NCBI RefSeq assembly: GCF_009193155.1
Contig: NZ_VUKD01000001.1
Span: forward strand, 1,116,001-1,180,000
DNA length: 64,000 bases
Direction: 5' to 3'
From: Georgenia subflava
GTDB taxonomy: Bacteria; Actinomycetota; Actinomycetes; Actinomycetales; Actinomycetaceae
The notes under the pieces were generated by a model. The model searched no databases, was not told where the DNA came from, and saw only the letters and a program-made list of their open reading frames with translations. The position numbers and the translations under genes are program-made. Of the stretch, positions 56,742 through 64,000 are shown in pieces (the first letter of the stretch is position 1; every line of letters begins with the position of its first letter).

Positions 56742-56870
56742 CCTGCTACTTGTGGCCGAGGGCAGTTCCACTCGTCTGGGCCGGCCTGTTGCTCGTGGCC
56801 GAGGGCAGCTCTGCTCATCCGGGCCGGCCTGCTACTCGTGACTGGGCAGCTCCTCGACCTCGCCGGCGGC
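56742..56870 (+). repeat. 43-bp tandem repeat running into the adenosyltransferase 3' end
   Basis: Units start at 56742, 56785 and 56828 (43-bp period), each beginning CCTG(C/T)T and containing GCTCGTGGCCGAGGGCAG-like sequence. The last unit includes the final codons of the adenosyltransferase (which ends PSHE). A partial fourth copy precedes the first. Confidence 0.7.
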
Positions 56871-57383
56871 GTGCCGGGCGAGCACGAACAACAGGTCCGA
56901 TACCCGGTTGAGGTAGGTCAACGCCTCCTCGCTCACCGGGTGGCCCGCCTGGCGTGCCGCCACGACGTGCCGCTCGGCCCGGCGCACCACCGTGCGCGCA
57001 TGGTCGATCGCCGCCCCCGTGGGCGTGGCCCCGGGGACGACGAACACCGGGCGCAGCGGACGCTCTGCGACGAGCTGGTCGATGAGCTCCTCCAGACCGG
57101 CGACCATCTCGGGCGTCACCCGGGACACACCGTCCCGTAGCCGTCGGCGCCGCTCGGGGTTCGTGGCCAGGTCCGCTCCGACCACGAAGAGCTCGCGCTG
57201 CAGCCGCAGGAGAAGGTCGGCGTGCTCCTCGTCCGGGCAGCCGGCGCGGGCGACACCGAGCAGGGCGACTGTCTCGTCGACGTCCCCGTAGCCGTCGACG
57301 AGGAGGTCACCCTTGGAGACCCGTCCGCCGAAGAACAGCCCGGTGGTGCCGTCGTCGCCGGTCTTCGTGTAGATCCTGGTCAT
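56832..57383 (-). CDS. PduO-type cob(I)alamin adenosyltransferase
   Basis: A 183-residue PduO-type adenosyltransferase: MTRIYTKTGDDGTTGLFFGGRV holds the ATP-binding start, and the C-terminal RRAERHVVAARQAG and LNRVSDLLFVLAR are conserved. It transfers the adenosyl group of ATP to cob(I)alamin to make adenosylcobalamin. It is divergent from the cobalamin riboswitch operon, so uptake and activation of B12 are side by side. The ATG at 57383 starts the conserved motif; a longer frame adds 8 residues. Confidence 0.93.
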   Translation of the reverse strand: MTRIYTKTGDDGTTGLFFGGRVSKGDLLVDGYGDVDETVALLGVARAGCPDEEHADLLLRLQRELFVVGADLATNPERRRRLRDGVSRVTPEMVAGLEELIDQLVAERPLRPVFVVPGATPTGAAIDHARTVVRRAERHVVAARQAGHPVSEEALTYLNRVSDLLFVLARHAAGEVEELPSHE

Positions 57384-57398
57384 CCAGGAAGCATGGCA

Positions 57399-57417
57399 CC
57401 CCCGCACCCGGCGGGGG
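57399..57417. other. Hairpin between adenosyltransferase and riboswitch
   Basis: A 7-bp stem (CCCCCGC/GCGGGGG) with a 5-nt loop lies just before the riboswitch and in the leader of the divergent adenosyltransferase gene. It may be part of the riboswitch P1 region or an independent leader hairpin. Confidence 0.4.
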
Positions 57418-57424
57418 ATGATGA

Positions 57425-57560
57425 GAACAGAAAACTGAAAGTAGACGTCCTGCCCCAGGGGAAGCCGGTCGAAGTCCGGCGCTGACCCGCAACCGTAGGT
57501 CGTCGGTCACCCACCGACGGCGAGCCGGGATGCCTGGCCAGGACTCCAGGCTCCATCCGT
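57425..57560 (+). promoter_or_regulatory. Cobalamin riboswitch
   Basis: The conserved cobalamin-riboswitch core is intact: the stretch from 57464 to 57497 (GCCGGTCGAAGTCCGGC then GCTGACCCGCAACCGTA) and a B12 box, AGCCGGGATGCCTGGCC, at 57523-57538. It lies upstream of an operon of a DUF4430 protein and an ECF transporter on the plus strand. Binding of B12 would reduce translation of the DUF4430 gene and its operon. The divergent adenosyltransferase is not in its reach. Confidence 0.92.
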
Positions 57561-57658
57561 CGAGGTCTGCGGACGAGCCCGCACTCGTCGTGCCGTCGAC
57601 CTGGGGTCGCGGGCTGCCGGGTCCGGGCCTGCTCGCAGGCTCACCCGAAAGGCATCGC

Positions 57659-58417
57659 ATGAGCATCCGCACCCGGTTGAGGCGTTCCGCGCTCACCGCC
57701 GTCCTCGTCCTCCCCCTCGGCGGCGCGCTGCCGGCCGCAGCGACGCCGGCTGTTCCCGACGGCGCATGCGTCGGCTCCTCCGGGGTGACGGTCGTCGTCG
57801 ACAGCACCGATCTCGGTGGTGACGTCGAGGTGGGGTGCGCGGAGGGCGACCCGGCCACCGGGCGTCAGGCCCTGGAGGCCGCGGGCTTCGAGCCGACCGA
57901 CTCGATCCCGGGGATGATCTGCGCGATCGACGCCCTGCCGGACCCGTGCCCCGAGGAGTTCCAGGGCAGCTACTGGGCGTACTTCGGTGCCGAGCCAGGC
58001 GAGGAGTGGGCCGCGCAGACCGCCGGGGCGGACGCGGTCGACCCGGACCCGGGCAGCTTCGAGGGGTGGCGCTACAACGACGGGACGGCCGGCCCGGGGA
58101 TCACGACGGCGCAGCTCGCCGGGGCAGCGACCGCCACGGCCGCCCCCGAGCAACCGGCGGACGACGAGGTCGCCTCCGATTCGCCCGCTCCGGGCGACCA
58201 GACCGGGGGAGCGCCTCCGGCAGCCGAATCCACCGACACCACCGACACCGCCGACACCGACGACGCCGACGGTGCCGACGATGCTGCCGACTCCGACGGT
58301 GCAGCGACCGAGGGTGACGGGCAGTCGGTGGACGCCGCCACGATCGCGTCGATCGCCGTCGTGGTCGTCGTTCTCGGTGTGATCGCCGCCGTGACCTTGC
58401 GACGCCGACAGGGCTGA
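57659..58417 (+). CDS. DUF4430 surface protein, predicted cobalamin-binding
   Basis: A 252-residue exported protein with a signal peptide (ending about ALPAAA), a DUF4430 domain at about 35-150 (GVTVVVDSTDLGG, GSYWAYFGAEPGEEW, WRYNDGTAGPGI), an Asp/Thr-rich spacer at about 165-225, and a C-terminal membrane anchor. DUF4430 also forms the C-terminal domain of transcobalamin and intrinsic factor, which bind B12. Here it leads a riboswitch-controlled ECF operon, so it is probably the external B12-binding partner. Its ATG lies 100 nt after the riboswitch core. Confidence 0.85.
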   Translation: MSIRTRLRRSALTAVLVLPLGGALPAAATPAVPDGACVGSSGVTVVVDSTDLGGDVEVGCAEGDPATGRQALEAAGFEPTDSIPGMICAIDALPDPCPEEFQGSYWAYFGAEPGEEWAAQTAGADAVDPDPGSFEGWRYNDGTAGPGITTAQLAGAATATAAPEQPADDEVASDSPAPGDQTGGAPPAAESTDTTDTADTDDADGADDAADSDGAATEGDGQSVDAATIASIAVVVVVLGVIAAVTLRRRQG

Positions 58418-58424
58418 ACCCACG

Positions 58425-59579
58425 ATGACGACGCACGCCGCGACTTCGGTGGGAGTGCCCGCCGAGGTCGGGCGTGCCCGCGGGCCGCGACGCACGCGCG
58501 GACGTTCTGATGGTCGGAGGCAGCCGGTCGGCACCGTCCACCCCCTCGCCTGGTGGGCGTGGGCGCTCGGCGTCGCGGTCGCCCTGACCCGCACCACGAA
58601 CCCGCTGGTGGTGGCCGGCCTGCTGGGCGCCGTCGTGCTCGTCGTCCTCGCCCGGCGCGGCGACACTCCGTGGGCACGCGCCTTCGGTGCCTACCTGGTG
58701 CTGGGCGTGGTCGTCGTACTGGTGCGCGTCGGCTTCTACGTGCTCGTGGGGCTCGACGACGCGAGCCCCGTGGTCGTGCACCTGCCCGCCGTCGCGCTGC
58801 CGGAGTGGGTGGCCAGCGTGGAGCTCCTCGGCCCCGTCCACGCCGCCGGGCTGCTCGGCGCCGCCTACGGCGGTCTGCGGCTCGCCGCCCTGATCGTGTG
58901 CTTCGGTGCCGCCAACGCGCTGGCCAACCCGAAGCGGGCGCTGCGCAGCCTGCCCGCGTCCCTCCATCACCTCGGTACCGCCGTCGTCATCGCCGTCACC
59001 GTCACCCCGCAGCTGGTCGGCGCGGTGCGCCGGGTGCGGCGGGCCCAGCGGCTGCGCGGGCTGGACGCGCGCGGTCCCCGGGCCGCCGTCGCCCGGCTGG
59101 TCCCCGTGCTGCAGGACGCGCTGGACCACGCGCTCGTCCTGGCCGCGTCGATGGACTCACGCGGGTACGCCCGCAGCGCCCGGCCCGGCGGCGACCCGTG
59201 GGTCGGGGCCGCGCTCGTGGTGGCGCTGCTCGCCGGGCTGCTCGGCACCTACGGCCTCCTCGACGCCACCACGCCGGGCTGGCTGGGACCCGCCCTGCTC
59301 GGCCTCGGGGCGCTCGCCGCCGTCGCCGCCTCGTTGGTCGCCGGGCGCCGGGTCCACCGCACGCGCTATCGGCCCGATCCGTGGCGGCGCCACGAGACCG
59401 CGCTGGCGGCGTGCGGGGTTCTCGCCGCGGTCTGCACGGCGGCCGCCGCCGCGCTCGACCCCGTCGGCATGTCGGACGCGCTGAGCCCGTTGCGCTGGCC
59501 GGAGCTGCCTCCGCTCGGCGTCGTCGCGACGCTGCTCGCCGTCGTTCCCGCAGTCCTCGGCCCGGGGAGAGCCCGATGA
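58425..59579 (+). CDS. ecfT: ECF transporter transmembrane subunit (EcfT)
   Basis: A 384-residue EcfT with about eight membrane helices and the two cytosolic coupling helices with A-R-G-like motifs (RRAQRLRG and ASMDSRGYARS). It transmits ATP hydrolysis to the S component. It begins 7 nt after the DUF4430 stop and overlaps EcfA by 4 bp. The N-terminus (about 1-38) is basic and disordered. Cobalamin-type ECF T-units normally serve S components such as BtuM or CbrT. Confidence 0.9.
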   Translation: MTTHAATSVGVPAEVGRARGPRRTRGRSDGRRQPVGTVHPLAWWAWALGVAVALTRTTNPLVVAGLLGAVVLVVLARRGDTPWARAFGAYLVLGVVVVLVRVGFYVLVGLDDASPVVVHLPAVALPEWVASVELLGPVHAAGLLGAAYGGLRLAALIVCFGAANALANPKRALRSLPASLHHLGTAVVIAVTVTPQLVGAVRRVRRAQRLRGLDARGPRAAVARLVPVLQDALDHALVLAASMDSRGYARSARPGGDPWVGAALVVALLAGLLGTYGLLDATTPGWLGPALLGLGALAAVAASLVAGRRVHRTRYRPDPWRRHETALAACGVLAAVCTAAAAALDPVGMSDALSPLRWPELPPLGVVATLLAVVPAVLGPGRAR

Positions 59580-61222
59580 TCCGCTTCGAGAACCTCTCGG
59601 TCACCTACGCGGGGGCACGGGCGCCGACCCTGCGCGACGTCACCGCCGAGGTCGACGAGGGTGAGCTGTGCCTGGTGGTCGGTCCCACCGGCTCGGGCAA
59701 GTCCACCCTGCTCGGCGCGGCGTGCGCGCGGGTCCCGCACTTCAGCGGCGGGACGCTCGCCGGGCGCGTGGTCGTCGCCGGCCGGGACACCCGCGACCAC
59801 CTGCCCCGAGACCTCGCCGACGTCGTCGGGGTGGTCGGTCAGGACCCGCTCGCCGGGTTCGTCACCGACTCCGTCGAGGAGGAGCTGGCCTTCGGCATGG
59901 AGCAGCTCGGCGTGGCCCCTGCGCTCATGCGCAAGCGCGTCGAGGAGGTCCTCGACCTGCTCGGCCTCGCCGCCCTGCGCGGCCGGCCGCTCGCCGACCT
60001 CTCCGGTGGCGAGCAGCAGCGCGTCGCCATCGGGGCGGTGCTCACCGCCCAGCCGCGCGTCCTGGTCCTGGACGAGCCCACCTCTGCCCTCGACCCGGCC
60101 GCCGCCGAGGACGTCCTCGCCGCCCTCGCCCGCCTCGTCCACGACCTCGGCGTCACCGTCCTCGTGGCCGAGCACCGCCTCGAGCGGGTGGTGCAGTTCG
60201 CCGACACGGTGATCGCCCTCGACGACGCCGGCCACGCCACGGCCGGGCCGCCCGCGCAGGTCCTGGCCACCTCCGCCGTCGCCCCGCCCGTCGTCGAGCT
60301 CGGCCGACTGGCCGGCTGGGACCCGCTCCCGCTCTCGGTGCGCGACGCGCGTCGCGTCGCCGGCCCTCTGCGGGAACGGCTCACGACGGCGGAGCAGATC
60401 GCCGTCCCCGAACGTGCGCCGGTCGGGCCGGCCGTGCACCCTCAGCCGGCTCTCACCGCCCGCCGGCTCGACGTCCGCCACGGCGATGTCCACGCCGTGC
60501 GCGCCGTCGACCTGACTCTGCGCGCCGGCGAGGTGGTGGCGCTCATGGGGCGTAACGGGTCGGGCAAGTCCTCGCTGCTCTGGGCGGTGCAGGGCCAGGG
60601 CCCGCGCAGCGGCGGGACCGTGCAGCTGGCCGACGGCGCGGACCCGGCCGGCATGCGGGCGGCCGTGGCGCGCCGGCACGTCGCCCTCGTGCCGCAGACG
60701 CCGGCGGACCTGCTCTATCTGCCGACCGTCGACGAGGAGTGCTCCGCCGGCGACGAGCAGGCCGGCGTCCCGCCCGGGACCACGCGTGGTCTGCTCGACC
60801 TCCTCGCGCCGGGTACCGGCGTCGACCACCACCCGCGTGACCTCTCCGAGGGGCAGCGCCTCGCGCTCGCGCTCGCGGTCCAGCTGGCGGCCGACCCGCC
60901 GGTGCTGCTCCTGGACGAACCGACCCGAGGTCTCGACTACACCGCCAAGGCCGGCCTCGCCGAGCTGCTGGCCCGTCTGCGCAGCCGAGGTCGCACCGTC
61001 CTGCTGGCCAGCCACGACGTCGAGTTCGTCGCCCGGTGCGCCGGCCGGGTGGTGCTCCTCGCCGACGGGGACGTGGTGGCCGACGCCGACGCCGCGACGG
61101 TCCTGCGCGACTCGGCCACCTTCGCGCCGCAGGTCGCCAAGATCCTGCGCCCGCTGCCGCTGCTCACCGTGGCGGACGTCCGGCGCGCGCTCGAGCCGGT
61201 CGGGACCGGAGGCGCGTCGTGA
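59576..61222 (+). CDS. Fused ECF ATPase with two nucleotide-binding domains
   Basis: A 548-residue double ATPase. The first half has Walker A GPTGSGKST at 36-44, signature LSGGEQQRVAIG and Walker B VLVLDEPTSALD. The second has Walker A GRNGSGKSS near residue 323, a divergent LSEGQRLALALA signature and LLLLDEPTRGLD. Most ECF systems use separate EcfA and EcfA'; actinobacterial fusions like this replace both. It overlaps EcfT and the S component by 4 bp each, fixing its place in the operon. Confidence 0.92.
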   Translation: MIRFENLSVTYAGARAPTLRDVTAEVDEGELCLVVGPTGSGKSTLLGAACARVPHFSGGTLAGRVVVAGRDTRDHLPRDLADVVGVVGQDPLAGFVTDSVEEELAFGMEQLGVAPALMRKRVEEVLDLLGLAALRGRPLADLSGGEQQRVAIGAVLTAQPRVLVLDEPTSALDPAAAEDVLAALARLVHDLGVTVLVAEHRLERVVQFADTVIALDDAGHATAGPPAQVLATSAVAPPVVELGRLAGWDPLPLSVRDARRVAGPLRERLTTAEQIAVPERAPVGPAVHPQPALTARRLDVRHGDVHAVRAVDLTLRAGEVVALMGRNGSGKSSLLWAVQGQGPRSGGTVQLADGADPAGMRAAVARRHVALVPQTPADLLYLPTVDEECSAGDEQAGVPPGTTRGLLDLLAPGTGVDHHPRDLSEGQRLALALAVQLAADPPVLLLDEPTRGLDYTAKAGLAELLARLRSRGRTVLLASHDVEFVARCAGRVVLLADGDVVADADAATVLRDSATFAPQVAKILRPLPLLTVADVRRALEPVGTGGAS

Positions 61223-62124
61223 CGTCCGGCGGCCGTCCACGGCGCGGCCGCGCTGCGACCGGTCGGTCGTACGTGGCAGACCGGTGGCGCGGCCGCGTCG
61301 CACCGTCGACGGCGGCCCCTCTCGCCGGCAGGTCCGCACGAGCGATCCCGGTAGGACGCCGCATGGCCGCCGCCCTGGTGCTGGCGTCCGCGCTCGGCGT
61401 CCTCGCCTTCGCATGGCCGCTGCTCGTCGACCCGGGCGCGGTGCTCGCCGACGGGACGGACGCGCCGCTCGTGCTGGCCCTGGTGCTCGGCGCGGCGCTG
61501 ACGGTGCTGCTGGTCGGCCTCGGCGACGGCGGTCTCGACGTCAAGGCCGTCGCGGTGCTGGGACTCCTCTCCGCCGTCGGGGCGGTGCTGCGCCCGGTCG
61601 CCGCCGGCACCGGCGGCGTGGAGACCGTGTTCCTCGTGATCGTCCTCGGCGGTCGGGTCCTGGGACCTGGCTTCGGCTTCGTGCTCGGGACGACGACCCT
61701 GTTCGCCTCGGCGATGCTCACCGGCGGCGTCGGGCCGTGGCTGCCCTTCCAGATGCTCGGGGCGGCGTGGGTCGGGCTCGGCGCGGGACTGCTGCCCCGG
61801 CGCGTGCGCGGCTGGCCGGAGGTCGTCCTCCTCGCGCTCTACGGCGTGGTGGCCGCCTTCGTCTACGGCTGGGCGATGAACCTCTCCTTCTGGCCGTTCC
61901 AGCTCGGTGCGGGCACCGGCCTGTCGTACGTGCCCGGCGACCCAATGGCGGAGAACCTGCGCCGGTTCGTCCTGTACTCGGTCGCGACCTCCCTCGGCTG
62001 GGACATCGGCCGGGCCGTGACGACGGCCGCCGGCATCCTGGTCCTGGGCAGACCGGTGCTCGCCACGCTGCGGCGGGCGGCGGTGCGCGCGGCCTTCGTC
62101 GCGGCGCCGCAGAAGGACCAGTGA
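61219..62124 (+). CDS. ECF S component, predicted cobalamin-specific
   Basis: A 301-residue membrane protein with about six helices, a long basic N-terminal leader (about 1-48), and a C-terminal pattern like CbrT/energy-coupling S components (YVPGDPMAENLRRFVLYSVATSLGWDIGRA). The S component binds substrate and docks EcfT. Its position in a riboswitch-controlled operon makes cobalamin the likely substrate. It is translated from a GTGA overlap with the ATPase gene. Confidence 0.87.
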   Translation: MTSGGRPRRGRAATGRSYVADRWRGRVAPSTAAPLAGRSARAIPVGRRMAAALVLASALGVLAFAWPLLVDPGAVLADGTDAPLVLALVLGAALTVLLVGLGDGGLDVKAVAVLGLLSAVGAVLRPVAAGTGGVETVFLVIVLGGRVLGPGFGFVLGTTTLFASAMLTGGVGPWLPFQMLGAAWVGLGAGLLPRRVRGWPEVVLLALYGVVAAFVYGWAMNLSFWPFQLGAGTGLSYVPGDPMAENLRRFVLYSVATSLGWDIGRAVTTAAGILVLGRPVLATLRRAAVRAAFVAAPQKDQ

Positions 62125-62155: not shown

Positions 62156-64000
62156 GTGGACGCGCGGACCGTGGTCCACGACCTCGTCGGCCGCGAGACC
62201 GAGCTCGCCGAGGCGCGCGATCTCCTCCAGGGCCCGGTCAGGCTCCTGACCCTCACCGGGCCACCCGGCGTGGGCAAGACGCGCCTGGCGAACGCCGTGA
62301 TGGCCGCAGTCGCGCCCGGCCTGGCCGACGGGGCGGTCTTCGCCGACCTCACCCCGGCGCGCGACCGGCACGGCGCGCTGGGCGAGATCGCCAGAGTTGT
62401 CGGCGTCAGCGCGGACGTGGGTCGGCGGACCGGTCAGCGCGTCCACCACGCGCTGCTCGAGCGCGAGCTCCTGCTGGTGCTCGACAACGCCGAGCAGGTG
62501 GTCGGGCTCGCTGACGAGCTCACCTCGATCCTCCAGGACTGCCCGCGTGTGCGGCTGCTGGTCACCAGCCGCGAGCGGATGCACCTGAGCGAGGAGCGCG
62601 AGCTGCCCGTCGAGCCGCTCGCCCTGCCGGTCGTCGACGCCGCCACGACGGCCGAGATCGAGTCGGCCCCCTCGGTCGCGATGTTCGCCACCGCCGCGCG
62701 GGCCGCGTGGCCCGGGTTCCGTGTGACGGACGGCAACGCCGCCGCCGTCGCCGAGATCTGCGTCCGGCTCGACGGACTCCCGCTCGCCCTCATCCTCGCC
62801 GCCGCCAGGGTCAGGATGTTCAGCCCCGCAGACATCGCCGCTCGGATTCGCGACCGCACGGCGATCCTCCGGGCTACCAGCCGCGACGTGCCCGAACGGC
62901 ACCGCAGCCTCCGCGCGGCGATCTCGTGGAGCGAGGCCGTGCTCGGCGCGGACGAGCGCCGCCTGTTCCGCCGTCTCTCGGTATTCGAGGGGGCGTGGAC
63001 GCTCCGTGCGGCCGAGGGGGTCACCGCCGAGCCCGGGCAGGACGTGGCTCGCACCCTGGAGTCGCTGGTCGACAAGAGCCTCGTGCAGCGCGTCGCGGCC
63101 CCTGGTGCGGAGGCGACCTTCGCGCTGCTCGCGAGCCTGCGCGAGTACGCCGCGGAGCAGCTCGAGGCATGCGACGAGGCAGCGCTCCTCGCCGAGAGGC
63201 ACGCCGCGTACTGCATCGACGTCGCCCGTCGGGTCGAGACCTCGATCGGGACGGCGCGGGAGGGCGTCTACTGGAGCTGGACCACCCGGCACGAGGGCGA
63301 CCTGACCCGCAGCCTGAGCAGGTGCCTCGCGACCGGACGGCACGAGGGTGCGCTGGTGCTCGCCACGGCTCTCGGGTGGACCTGGTACACACGCGGGCAC
63401 CTCGGTGAAGCGGACAAGGTCCTCGATCGCGTGCTGACGGCCGCGGACGGAGCCGAGGTCGCGGACGACAACGACGTCCCCGACGTGCCCGACGACTCCG
63501 ACGTCCCGGACGGCGTCGGACGGCTGCACCCCGAGGTCCTCGCGGCCGCCCGGATCATCGCCGGCGTCATCGCGTGGGGACGGGACGACCTCGAGCGCGC
63601 CGATGCGCTGCTGGAGCCGGCCCGAGCCGACTGCGCGAGACGCGACGACGCGCGCCGGCTGGCGATGGCCTGCGCGTTCCTCGGGCACGTCGCGCGCGAC
63701 AGCGGCCGGCTCGACGACGCCCGCAGCCGGCACGAAGAGGCGGCGCACCTCTTCGACGGCGTCGGCAGCGCGCGCGGAGCGGCGTGGGCACGGTTCGACC
63801 TCGGCCGGGTCGCCTGGCGCCGCGGCGACCTCGACGCGGCGGGCGAGCTCTTCCGGGTCGCGCTGCGCGGGTTCCGGGACGACGGGTACCGCTGGGCGGT
63901 GGCGTGGTGCGCCTGGGCACTGGGGAACGTCGATGTCGAGGTGGGTCACCCCGACGACGGCGCCGGACTGCTGCTGCTCGCGCTCACCGAGTTCGACGCG
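62156..64000 (+). CDS. STAND (NB-ARC-like) NTPase with TPR region, 3' end outside window
   Basis: An open frame of 615 codons without a stop reaches the right edge. Residues about 10-310 form a STAND ATPase: Walker A GPPGVGKT (35-42), Walker B LLLVLDN (Asp110), RLLVTSRERMHL and GLPLALILAAAR. Helical repeats follow from about 340, split near 440 by an acidic linker of repeated DVPD. No LuxR or SARP domain is seen yet; one could lie beyond the window. The GTG start sits 6 nt after a TACGGT -10 (leaderless), so it is separate from the B12 operon. Confidence 0.85.
   Translation, partial: MDARTVVHDLVGRETELAEARDLLQGPVRLLTLTGPPGVGKTRLANAVMAAVAPGLADGAVFADLTPARDRHGALGEIARVVGVSADVGRRTGQRVHHALLERELLLVLDNAEQVVGLADELTSILQDCPRVRLLVTSRERMHLSEERELPVEPLALPVVDAATTAEIESAPSVAMFATAARAAWPGFRVTDGNAAAVAEICVRLDGLPLALILAAARVRMFSPADIAARIRDRTAILRATSRDVPERHRSLRAAISWSEAVLGADERRLFRRLSVFEGAWTLRAAEGVTAEPGQDVARTLESLVDKSLVQRVAAPGAEATFALLASLREYAAEQLEACDEAALLAERHAAYCIDVARRVETSIGTAREGVYWSWTTRHEGDLTRSLSRCLATGRHEGALVLATALGWTWYTRGHLGEADKVLDRVLTAADGAEVADDNDVPDVPDDSDVPDGVGRLHPEVLAAARIIAGVIAWGRDDLERADALLEPARADCARRDDARRLAMACAFLGHVARDSGRLDDARSRHEEAAHLFDGVGSARGAAWARFDLGRVAWRRGDLDAAGELFRVALRGFRDDGYRWAVAWCAWALGNVDVEVGHPDDGAGLLLLALTEFDA

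What the first reader, a model, noticed from the sequence alone, without database searches (positions are those of the whole stretch)
57425..62124. Riboswitch-controlled B12 uptake system with a transcobalamin-like surface receptor
Seen: a full cobalamin riboswitch (57464-57538 core), then four tightly packed genes: a secreted, membrane-anchored DUF4430 protein, EcfT, a fused double-ATPase and an S component, with 7-nt, 4-bp and 4-bp junctions. A PduO adenosyltransferase lies divergently. Known: DUF4430 is the C-terminal domain of transcobalamin and intrinsic factor. Inference: DUF4430 catches B12 outside the cell and passes it to the ECF S component, an arrangement without a classical BtuF-type binding protein.
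Basis: partly seen in the sequence, partly recalled or inferred. Interest (0 to 1): 0.72.

Follow-up and report, generated by a model that had tools for sequence, protein, structure and literature searches.

The report
Bacterial transcobalamin-like vitamin B12 uptake operon
An actinobacterium carries a B12-controlled import operon whose surface protein is predicted to have the same fold as one half of transcobalamin, the human B12 carrier; many relatives encode the other half as well.

Summary
Confirmed. A cobalamin riboswitch (57434-57556, the genome's only RF00174 match) leads four packed genes: a secreted, membrane-anchored small-domain protein, EcfT, a fused double EcfA and an ECF S component; PduO is divergent. 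A confident AlphaFold2 model (pLDDT 89) finds only transcobalamin, haptocorrin and intrinsic-factor beta domains at Foldseek ranks 1-16 of 350,542 PDB chains, and profile comparison with true DUF4430 domains is significant. Of 61 named actinobacterial loci, 58 have the domain upstream of the S gene, 58 the riboswitch, 51 an alpha/alpha-toroid protein, the other half of transcobalamin. The window's genome and 12 of 13 relatives searched lack the toroid: here the beta domain works alone. The host has MetH and no CbiC. Five sampled loci without riboswitch lie beside their genome's only B12-binding-domain gene. The general idea (transcobalamin-like domain with CbiO/CbiQ scavenges B12) was published as a prediction in 2007. 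Apparently new: the actinobacterial branch beyond Pfam's reach, its riboswitch, beta-only systems and circularly permuted beta domains. Cobalamin binding and transport are untested.

The parts
56832..57407 (-). PduO-type cob(I)alamin adenosyltransferase gene, divergent from the operon
   Evidence: PF01923 170.5 bits; TIGR00636 149.7 bits over cut-off. Next to the operon in 9 of 11 relative loci but only 1 of 61 named loci.
57434..57556 (+). Cobalamin riboswitch aptamer
   Evidence: RF00174 36.9 bits, model positions 1-189; only match reported in the genome.
57659..58417 (+). Secreted, membrane-anchored transcobalamin-beta-like protein, 252 aa
   Evidence: Signal peptide, domain, acidic/Thr-rich linker and C-terminal hydrophobic segment read from the sequence; NCBIfam SCO2322_fam weak hit, 17.9 against 85 bits.
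57755..58123 (+). The beta-grasp (transcobalamin beta / DUF4430-like) domain as modelled
   Evidence: AlphaFold2 pLDDT 89.1, pTM 0.82; Foldseek ranks 1-16 all transcobalamin family; profile match to PF14478 domains.
58331..58414 (+). Predicted C-terminal membrane anchor with positive tail
   Evidence: Hydrophobic stretch followed by RRRQG, read directly from the translation; no predictor was run.
58425..59579 (+). EcfT transmembrane coupling protein
   Evidence: PF02361 29.2 bits over cut-off.
59576..61222 (+). Fused double ATPase EcfA-EcfA'
   Evidence: Two ABC_tran stretches; TIGR04520/04521 are the best NCBIfam hits, below cut-off.
61219..62124 (+). ECF S component, predicted corrinoid-specific
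   Evidence: PF12822 37.2 bits over cut-off; homologs in 158 of 296 class genomes at E<=1e-10.

Best explanation
This is a dedicated (group I) ECF transporter for cobalamin or related corrinoids with a transcobalamin-beta-like domain tethered to the outer face of the membrane. When cellular cobalamin is low, the riboswitch allows expression. The beta domain captures the corrinoid outside (inferred) and passes it to, or holds it against, the S component. EcfT and the fused EcfA drive its release inside (inferred from the ECF family), and the divergent PduO makes adenosylcobalamin. In most actinobacterial relatives sampled, a second surface protein, an alpha/alpha toroid like transcobalamin's alpha domain, completes a split transcobalamin. 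The window's lineage has lost it, or never had it, and works with the beta domain alone. Shown: riboswitch, genes, gene-order conservation, predicted beta-domain fold, a B12-dependent enzyme without a marker of de novo synthesis. Inferred: ligand binding, hand-over, transport.
For: Riboswitch over threshold and the only one reported in the genome. Fold search: ranks 1-16 of 350,542 chains are transcobalamin/haptocorrin/intrinsic factor, best 5no0 E 2.2e-3 and 5np4 (beta domain with cyanocobalamin) E 4.1e-3, both probability 1.00. Profile match to 11 true PF14478 domains: E 7.6e-6, probability 84%; in a second run score 32.4 (probability 72%) against at most 7.98 in 100 column shuffles and -0.47 reversed. 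Of 61 named loci, 58 have the domain upstream of S, 58 the riboswitch, 51 a toroid. A natural single-chain toroid-beta protein (L125) has only six PDB fold matches at E<=0.001, all transcobalamin, over 422-474 columns. Own genome has MetH and no CbiC. Five of the six sampled loci lacking a riboswitch lie 1.1-3.7 kb from their genome's only PF02310 match. Human transcobalamin beta alone was crystallised with cyanocobalamin, and separate alpha and beta assemble in a cobalamin-dependent way (PMC5599065, abstract and passages).
Against: No binding or transport data. Foldseek E-values for the beta domain are modest (none <=0.001) with TM-scores about 0.5; the two-domain model has pTM 0.62 and TM-scores of 0.26-0.32 by query. 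Pfam DUF4430 matches no family member. The S component matches no solved chain. Two family members with the operon, G010 and G015, have no PF02965 (MetH) match; other B12 enzymes were not searched there. CbiC is a single pathway marker. Expression platform unresolved: no terminator found, folding not better than shuffles. Five of 38 sampled loci with the domain lack the riboswitch. Some loci have riboswitch and T-A-S without a detected domain: L093, L131 and L179.
Confidence: 0.82

Rival explanations
1. Cobalt rather than B12 transporter: EcfT is CbiQ-like, and Cbl riboswitches can also control cobalt uptake (recalled).
For: EcfT hits PF02361 'Cobalt transport protein'.
Against: S component hits PF12822, not a CbiM family; own genome lacks CbiC (one marker), so cobalt would probably serve no corrin pathway; the surface domain is transcobalamin-like; five riboswitch-less loci lie beside a B12-binding-domain gene.
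Confidence: 0.05
2. The beta domain binds cobalamin but is a store, sensor or shield rather than the capture step for this transporter.
For: No toroid in this genome, so affinity could be modest; in a few loci, secreted proteins that by eye look like further toroids or a beta domain lie under separate riboswitches.
Against: The domain lies upstream of the S gene on the same strand in 58 of 61 named loci and 7 nt before EcfT in the window.
Confidence: 0.13
3. The system takes up a precursor or analogue (cobinamide, other cobamides) rather than, or besides, cobalamin itself.
For: Transcobalamin beta was also solved with cobinamide (PMC5599065 abstract); ECF-CbrT transports both (PMC5997447 passages).
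Against: None specific; salvage genes were not searched in this genome.
Confidence: 0.2
4. The beta-only form is a decaying remnant after loss of the toroid.
For: Toroid absent from the window's genome and 12 of 13 relatives searched, two of which (G008, G016) also lack the beta domain.
Against: The domain is 66-71% identical to the window's in eight close relatives while linkers vary; 13 of 13 further beta-only genomes of other families also lack the toroid genome-wide, and each keeps a riboswitch (8) or a nearby PF02310 gene (5).
Confidence: 0.05

Closest known systems
Transcobalamin / haptocorrin / intrinsic factor (animal B12 carriers)
   Same: Predicted beta-domain fold ranks with theirs; most relatives sampled also have an alpha/alpha toroid, in L125 fused in the same alpha-beta order.
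   Different: Bacterial, membrane-anchored, usually two genes; the window's genome lacks the toroid; 10-18% identity to the solved family members listed.
SLBB superfamily, transcobalamin-like clade (Burroughs 2007, PMC1796856)
   Same: Predicted surface SLBB proteins, often with toroids, in operons with CbiO-like ATPase and CbiQ-like membrane protein, proposed to scavenge B12 (abstract, section 7 part 1, sections 8 and 10, passages).
   Different: The text seen places the clade in low-GC Gram-positives, planctomycetes and some euryarchaea; its one mention of actinobacteria concerns ComEA. No riboswitch or permutation is mentioned in the parts read. Its figures and supplement were not seen.
ECF-CbrT (B12 ECF transporter of Lactobacillus delbrueckii, PMC5997447)
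   Same: ECF import of cobalamin; pduO gene in the cluster (passages).
   Different: In the passages read the S component itself is the binding protein; here an extracellular domain is added and the ECF module is in the operon. The S profile matches no PDB chain at E<=1.
NCBIfam SCO2321 and SCO2322 families
   Same: Toroid and beta proteins at the same operon positions in L078 (both) pass these models; toroid of L079 and beta of L062, L063 too.
   Different: The model names carry no function; the SCO2322 type is a circular permutation of the window's domain and the window protein scores far below its cut-off.
BtuCDF
   Same: ATP-driven cobalamin import with an extracytoplasmic capture protein (recalled; PMC5997447 passages).
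   Different: None of the operon's proteins hits a BtuF-like or BtuC-like family.

Membership tests
Cobalamin riboswitch RF00174 | Covariance-model score above gathering threshold | tested here: met
   36.9 against 31.5 bits.
Pfam DUF4430 (PF14478) | Match to the Pfam model over its cut-off | tested here: not met
   No match for the window protein; 0 of 33 members at E<=10.
Transcobalamin-beta-like (SLBB) domain | Beta-grasp fold closest to transcobalamin beta | tested here: met
   Foldseek ranks 1-16, on a predicted model.
Transcobalamin-beta-like (SLBB) domain | Profile-level sequence relation to accepted members | tested here: met
   hhalign E 7.6e-6, probability 84%; far above 100 shuffles.
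Transcobalamin-beta-like (SLBB) domain | Binds cobalamin | not testable with these tools
   Needs purified protein.
Transcobalamin (two-domain carrier) | Alpha/alpha toroid partner or fusion | tested here: not met
   Absent from the window's genome; present in 51 of 61 named loci.
ECF transporter, group I | EcfT, two ABC ATPase units and a dedicated S component in one operon | tested here: met
CbrT S components | Sequence relation to the solved B12 S component | tested here: not met
   Profile A5 matches no PDB chain at E<=1; no fold comparison was run, so a distant relation stays open.
BtuCDF-type system | BtuF-like binding protein with BtuC permease | tested here: not met
   None among the operon's proteins; the rest of the genome was not searched for it.

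The most novel reading that the evidence does not exclude
In the beta-only actinobacteria the ECF S component takes over the role of transcobalamin's alpha domain: the tethered beta domain and the outer face of the S component sandwich the corrinoid between them, so the membrane importer itself is half of a transcobalamin. This would be an ECF transporter with an extracellular lid. Other lineages solve the same problem with a separate toroid, and circularly permuted beta domains evolved within the same family.
Probability: 0.3. Interest if true: 0.75.

Novelty: new variant of a known kind. Interest (0 to 1): 0.52.

Why it matters
How many Gram-positive bacteria take up B12 is unassigned. This proposes a function for the SCO2321 and SCO2322 families, whose names carry none, and for an S component found in 158 of 296 sampled genomes of the class. 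It gives natural split, fused (both orders), permuted and beta-only versions of a transcobalamin for testing how two halves share one ligand. It also offers an experimental system for the published proposal that animals obtained transcobalamin from bacteria (PMC1796856).

Tried and rejected
Pfam and NCBIfam scans alone do not identify the domain; profile and fold comparison were needed. A sequence search of the domain profile against PDB gave only chance-level matches, best E 0.055. The toroid profile against PDB sequences hits terpene cyclases, complement C4 and other toroids, not transcobalamin (60 of 65 rows shown), so the toroid's link to transcobalamin rests on the two-domain fold search and on the pairing. 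Cobalt transport was considered and rejected. The idea that riboswitch-less loci carry another substrate was considered; the neighbouring B12-binding-domain gene argues against it. Expression platform: no terminator, fold not better than shuffles; left open. The rotation of the toroid relative to the L023-type profile may be a register shift in a repeat protein; not confirmed by structure. Rows dropped: L105 was left out of A7 (wrong offset); tblastn EcfA pieces under 38% identity were left out of the gene tables, so EcfA is not shown for L059 and L064; 19 of 80 named loci were left out of the counts for lack of 7 kb upstream of S.
Full report
WHAT IS THERE. The window holds a cobalamin riboswitch at 57434-57556 (36.9 bits, gathering 31.5), the only RF00174 match reported for the genome. 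About 100 nt later come four genes with a 7-nt gap and two 4-bp overlaps: a 252-aa protein with signal peptide, a cysteine-containing domain, an acidic linker and a C-terminal hydrophobic segment; EcfT (PF02361); a fused double ATPase (two ABC_tran stretches); and an S component (PF12822). A PduO adenosyltransferase is divergent.

IS THE SURFACE DOMAIN REALLY TRANSCOBALAMIN-LIKE? Pfam's DUF4430 model says nothing: no match for the protein, for any of 33 aligned family members, or in the genome. AlphaFold2 on alignment A2 gave pLDDT 89.1 and pTM 0.82; Foldseek against 350,542 PDB chains put transcobalamin, haptocorrin and intrinsic factor at ranks 1 to 16, the first other fold at rank 17 with probability 0.63. 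E-values are modest (best 2.2e-3), so the uniform ranking is the evidence, not one score. Profile comparison of A2 with 11 true PF14478 domains from elsewhere in the phylum (11 of the 12 loci fetched) gave E 7.6e-6 and probability 84%; in a second run with other settings the score was 32.4 (probability 72%), against at most 7.98 in 100 column shuffles and -0.47 for the reversed profile.

CONSERVATION NEAR HOME. A protein search of 59 genomes found the domain in 12, the window's own included. In the other 11 the order beta-T-A-S holds, except that the contig of L017 ends inside EcfA. PduO is divergent in 9 of 11. The riboswitch is over threshold in 4, below threshold in 6 and in L023 (27.5 bits): 11 of 11 carry a recognisable copy, 7 of them below Rfam's gathering score.

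CONSERVATION FAR AFIELD. The S component has homologs in 158 of 296 class genomes. I fetched 40 loci from 38 of these genomes, chosen by hand for spread. With profiles built from these and the near loci themselves, the beta domain lies upstream of T and S in 38 of 40 and a toroid protein is in 25 of 40. A riboswitch model made from 11 near sequences hits 34 of 40, weakest E 0.003. A second set is the 80 named loci most similar in the S component, out of 253 confirmed in a capped scan: of 61 with at least 7 kb upstream, 58 have the beta domain upstream of S, 58 the riboswitch, 51 a toroid anywhere in the locus, and 61 T and A. Without the domain upstream: L131, L179, and L137, where it follows S. 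The two sets overlap at least in L150 (G333) and L167 (G123), which share contig lengths. The nearest named relatives are Actinotalea species (L124, L136), so the window is probably from that group (inference).

THE OTHER HALF OF TRANSCOBALAMIN. In L078 the toroid and beta proteins pass NCBIfam SCO2321 and SCO2322, models whose names carry no function. In L125 (a Nocardioidaceae MAG) toroid and beta domain are one chain in transcobalamin's own order; in nine other reading frames the order is beta-toroid, mostly with tandem toroids. AlphaFold2 of L125 (pLDDT 77.9, pTM 0.62) gave exactly six PDB matches at E<=0.001, all transcobalamin, aligned over 422-474 columns; TM-scores are low (0.26-0.32 by query), so domain placement is not reliable. 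Elsewhere in the phylum, 34 of 198 genomes have true PF14478 matches. Of 14 such loci fetched, six match the toroid profile (L110, L115-L118, L122), and in L117, L118 and L119 the reading frames beside the domain look by eye like T, A and S; they were not family-scanned. Six of 9 of these loci searched have RF00174 and one more AdoCbl-II.

THE WINDOW'S FORM IS BETA-ONLY. A genome-wide search with the toroid profile found none in the window's genome or in 12 of 13 relatives; G052 has one. Of the 12, ten have the beta domain, and G008 and G016 lack it. The profile found none in 13 of 13 further genomes whose fetched loci have the beta domain but no toroid, while two control genomes were positive. 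The domain stays conserved: 66-71% identity to the window's in eight close relatives.

IS THE LIGAND B12? The genome has MetH (PF02965) and no CbiC (G144 was positive), so it appears to need corrinoid from outside; other pathway genes were not searched. Against this, the operon-bearing relatives G010 and G015 have no PF02965 match. Of the 6 of 40 loci without a riboswitch hit, five (G040, G055, G171, G202, G314) have their genome's only PF02310 match, in frames of MetH size (1213-1251 aa), 1.1-3.7 kb from the S gene; in L059 the two frames overlap end to end. None of these five genomes has an RF00174 match, though that model scores this branch's riboswitches weakly. The sixth, L085 (G312), lacks the beta domain too; that genome has nine RF00174 matches, six over cut-off.

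HOW IT PROBABLY WORKS. Low cobalamin opens expression; the tethered beta domain captures corrinoid; the S component receives it; EcfT-EcfA power release; PduO adenosylates. Binding by beta alone has a precedent: human transcobalamin beta was crystallised with cyanocobalamin, and separately made alpha and beta assemble in a cobalamin-dependent way (PMC5599065, abstract and passages). In the beta-only form the S component may replace the toroid as the other side of the sandwich; this is my most novel reading and is untested.

A SIDE FINDING. The beta domain is circularly permuted in 20 of 38 sampled loci. A doubled A2 profile matches 12 of 13 tested permuted proteins as one stretch from about position 77 through the join to about 200. 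In the first set, 12 of 12 rotated toroids go with permuted beta domains and 13 of 13 others with unpermuted. In the second set, of 51 loci with both, the pairs are 33 neither, 14 both, 3 toroid only and 1 beta only. Two of the 3 toroid-only cases (L195, L201) are tandem-toroid fusions, where the call may be an artefact; the third is L138.

PRIOR ART. Burroughs et al. 2007 (PMC1796856; abstract, section 7 part 1, sections 8 and 10, passages) already proposed that bacterial transcobalamin-like SLBB proteins, often with toroids, in operons with CbiO and CbiQ homologs, scavenge B12, and that animals acquired the gene from bacteria. A Lacticaseibacillus table lists an 'additional lipoprotein component of putative cobalamin ECF transporter' (PMC9963975 passages). 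So the kind is known as a prediction. I found no paper on the actinobacterial branch in searches for DUF4430, SCO2322, SCO2321 and neighbours, transcobalamin-like phrases, and PF14478; most subscription journals and all bioRxiv preprints are missing from that library, and Rodionov 2009 is not held.

VERDICT. Real, well supported as a B12 uptake operon with a transcobalamin-like surface domain; a new variant of a predicted kind; biochemistry open.

Noticed in passing
L062, L063, L071, L078, L089-L092, L095 and others: The beta domain is circularly permuted (cut near the conserved YW motif) in 20 of 38 sampled loci, the SCO2322 type; a doubled profile matches 12 of 13 tested as one stretch.
   Followed up: partly
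L059, L060, L061, L064, L065: Loci without riboswitch have the genome's only PF02310 (B12-binding) match, in a MetH-sized frame, within 1.1-3.7 kb of the S gene.
   Followed up: partly
L059:2434-4074 (-), L061:2439-4031 (-): The reading frame that holds the S component begins with an ATPase-like stretch with a Walker A motif, suggesting an EcfA'-S fusion in this branch (read by eye).
   Followed up: no
L130:2668-2802, L143:2900-3037, L147:12482-12618, L186:11585-11742, L181:3130-3208 (minus strand): Second cobalamin riboswitches on the opposite strand, several back to back with the operon's own. By eye, the genes behind them look like further secreted toroids in L130, L143 and L147 and a small secreted beta-like protein in L186.
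   Followed up: partly
L017:8626-8773, L019:9531-9681, L020:5423-5570: c-di-AMP riboswitches lie beyond the PduO gene in three relatives; target genes not examined.
   Followed up: no
G312 (L085): Genome with nine RF00174 matches (six over cut-off) whose fetched T-A-S locus lacks both the beta domain and a riboswitch hit.
   Followed up: no
window 62156-63946: Downstream frame with AAA/NB-ARC and TPR matches, probably a regulator and not part of the operon.
   Followed up: no
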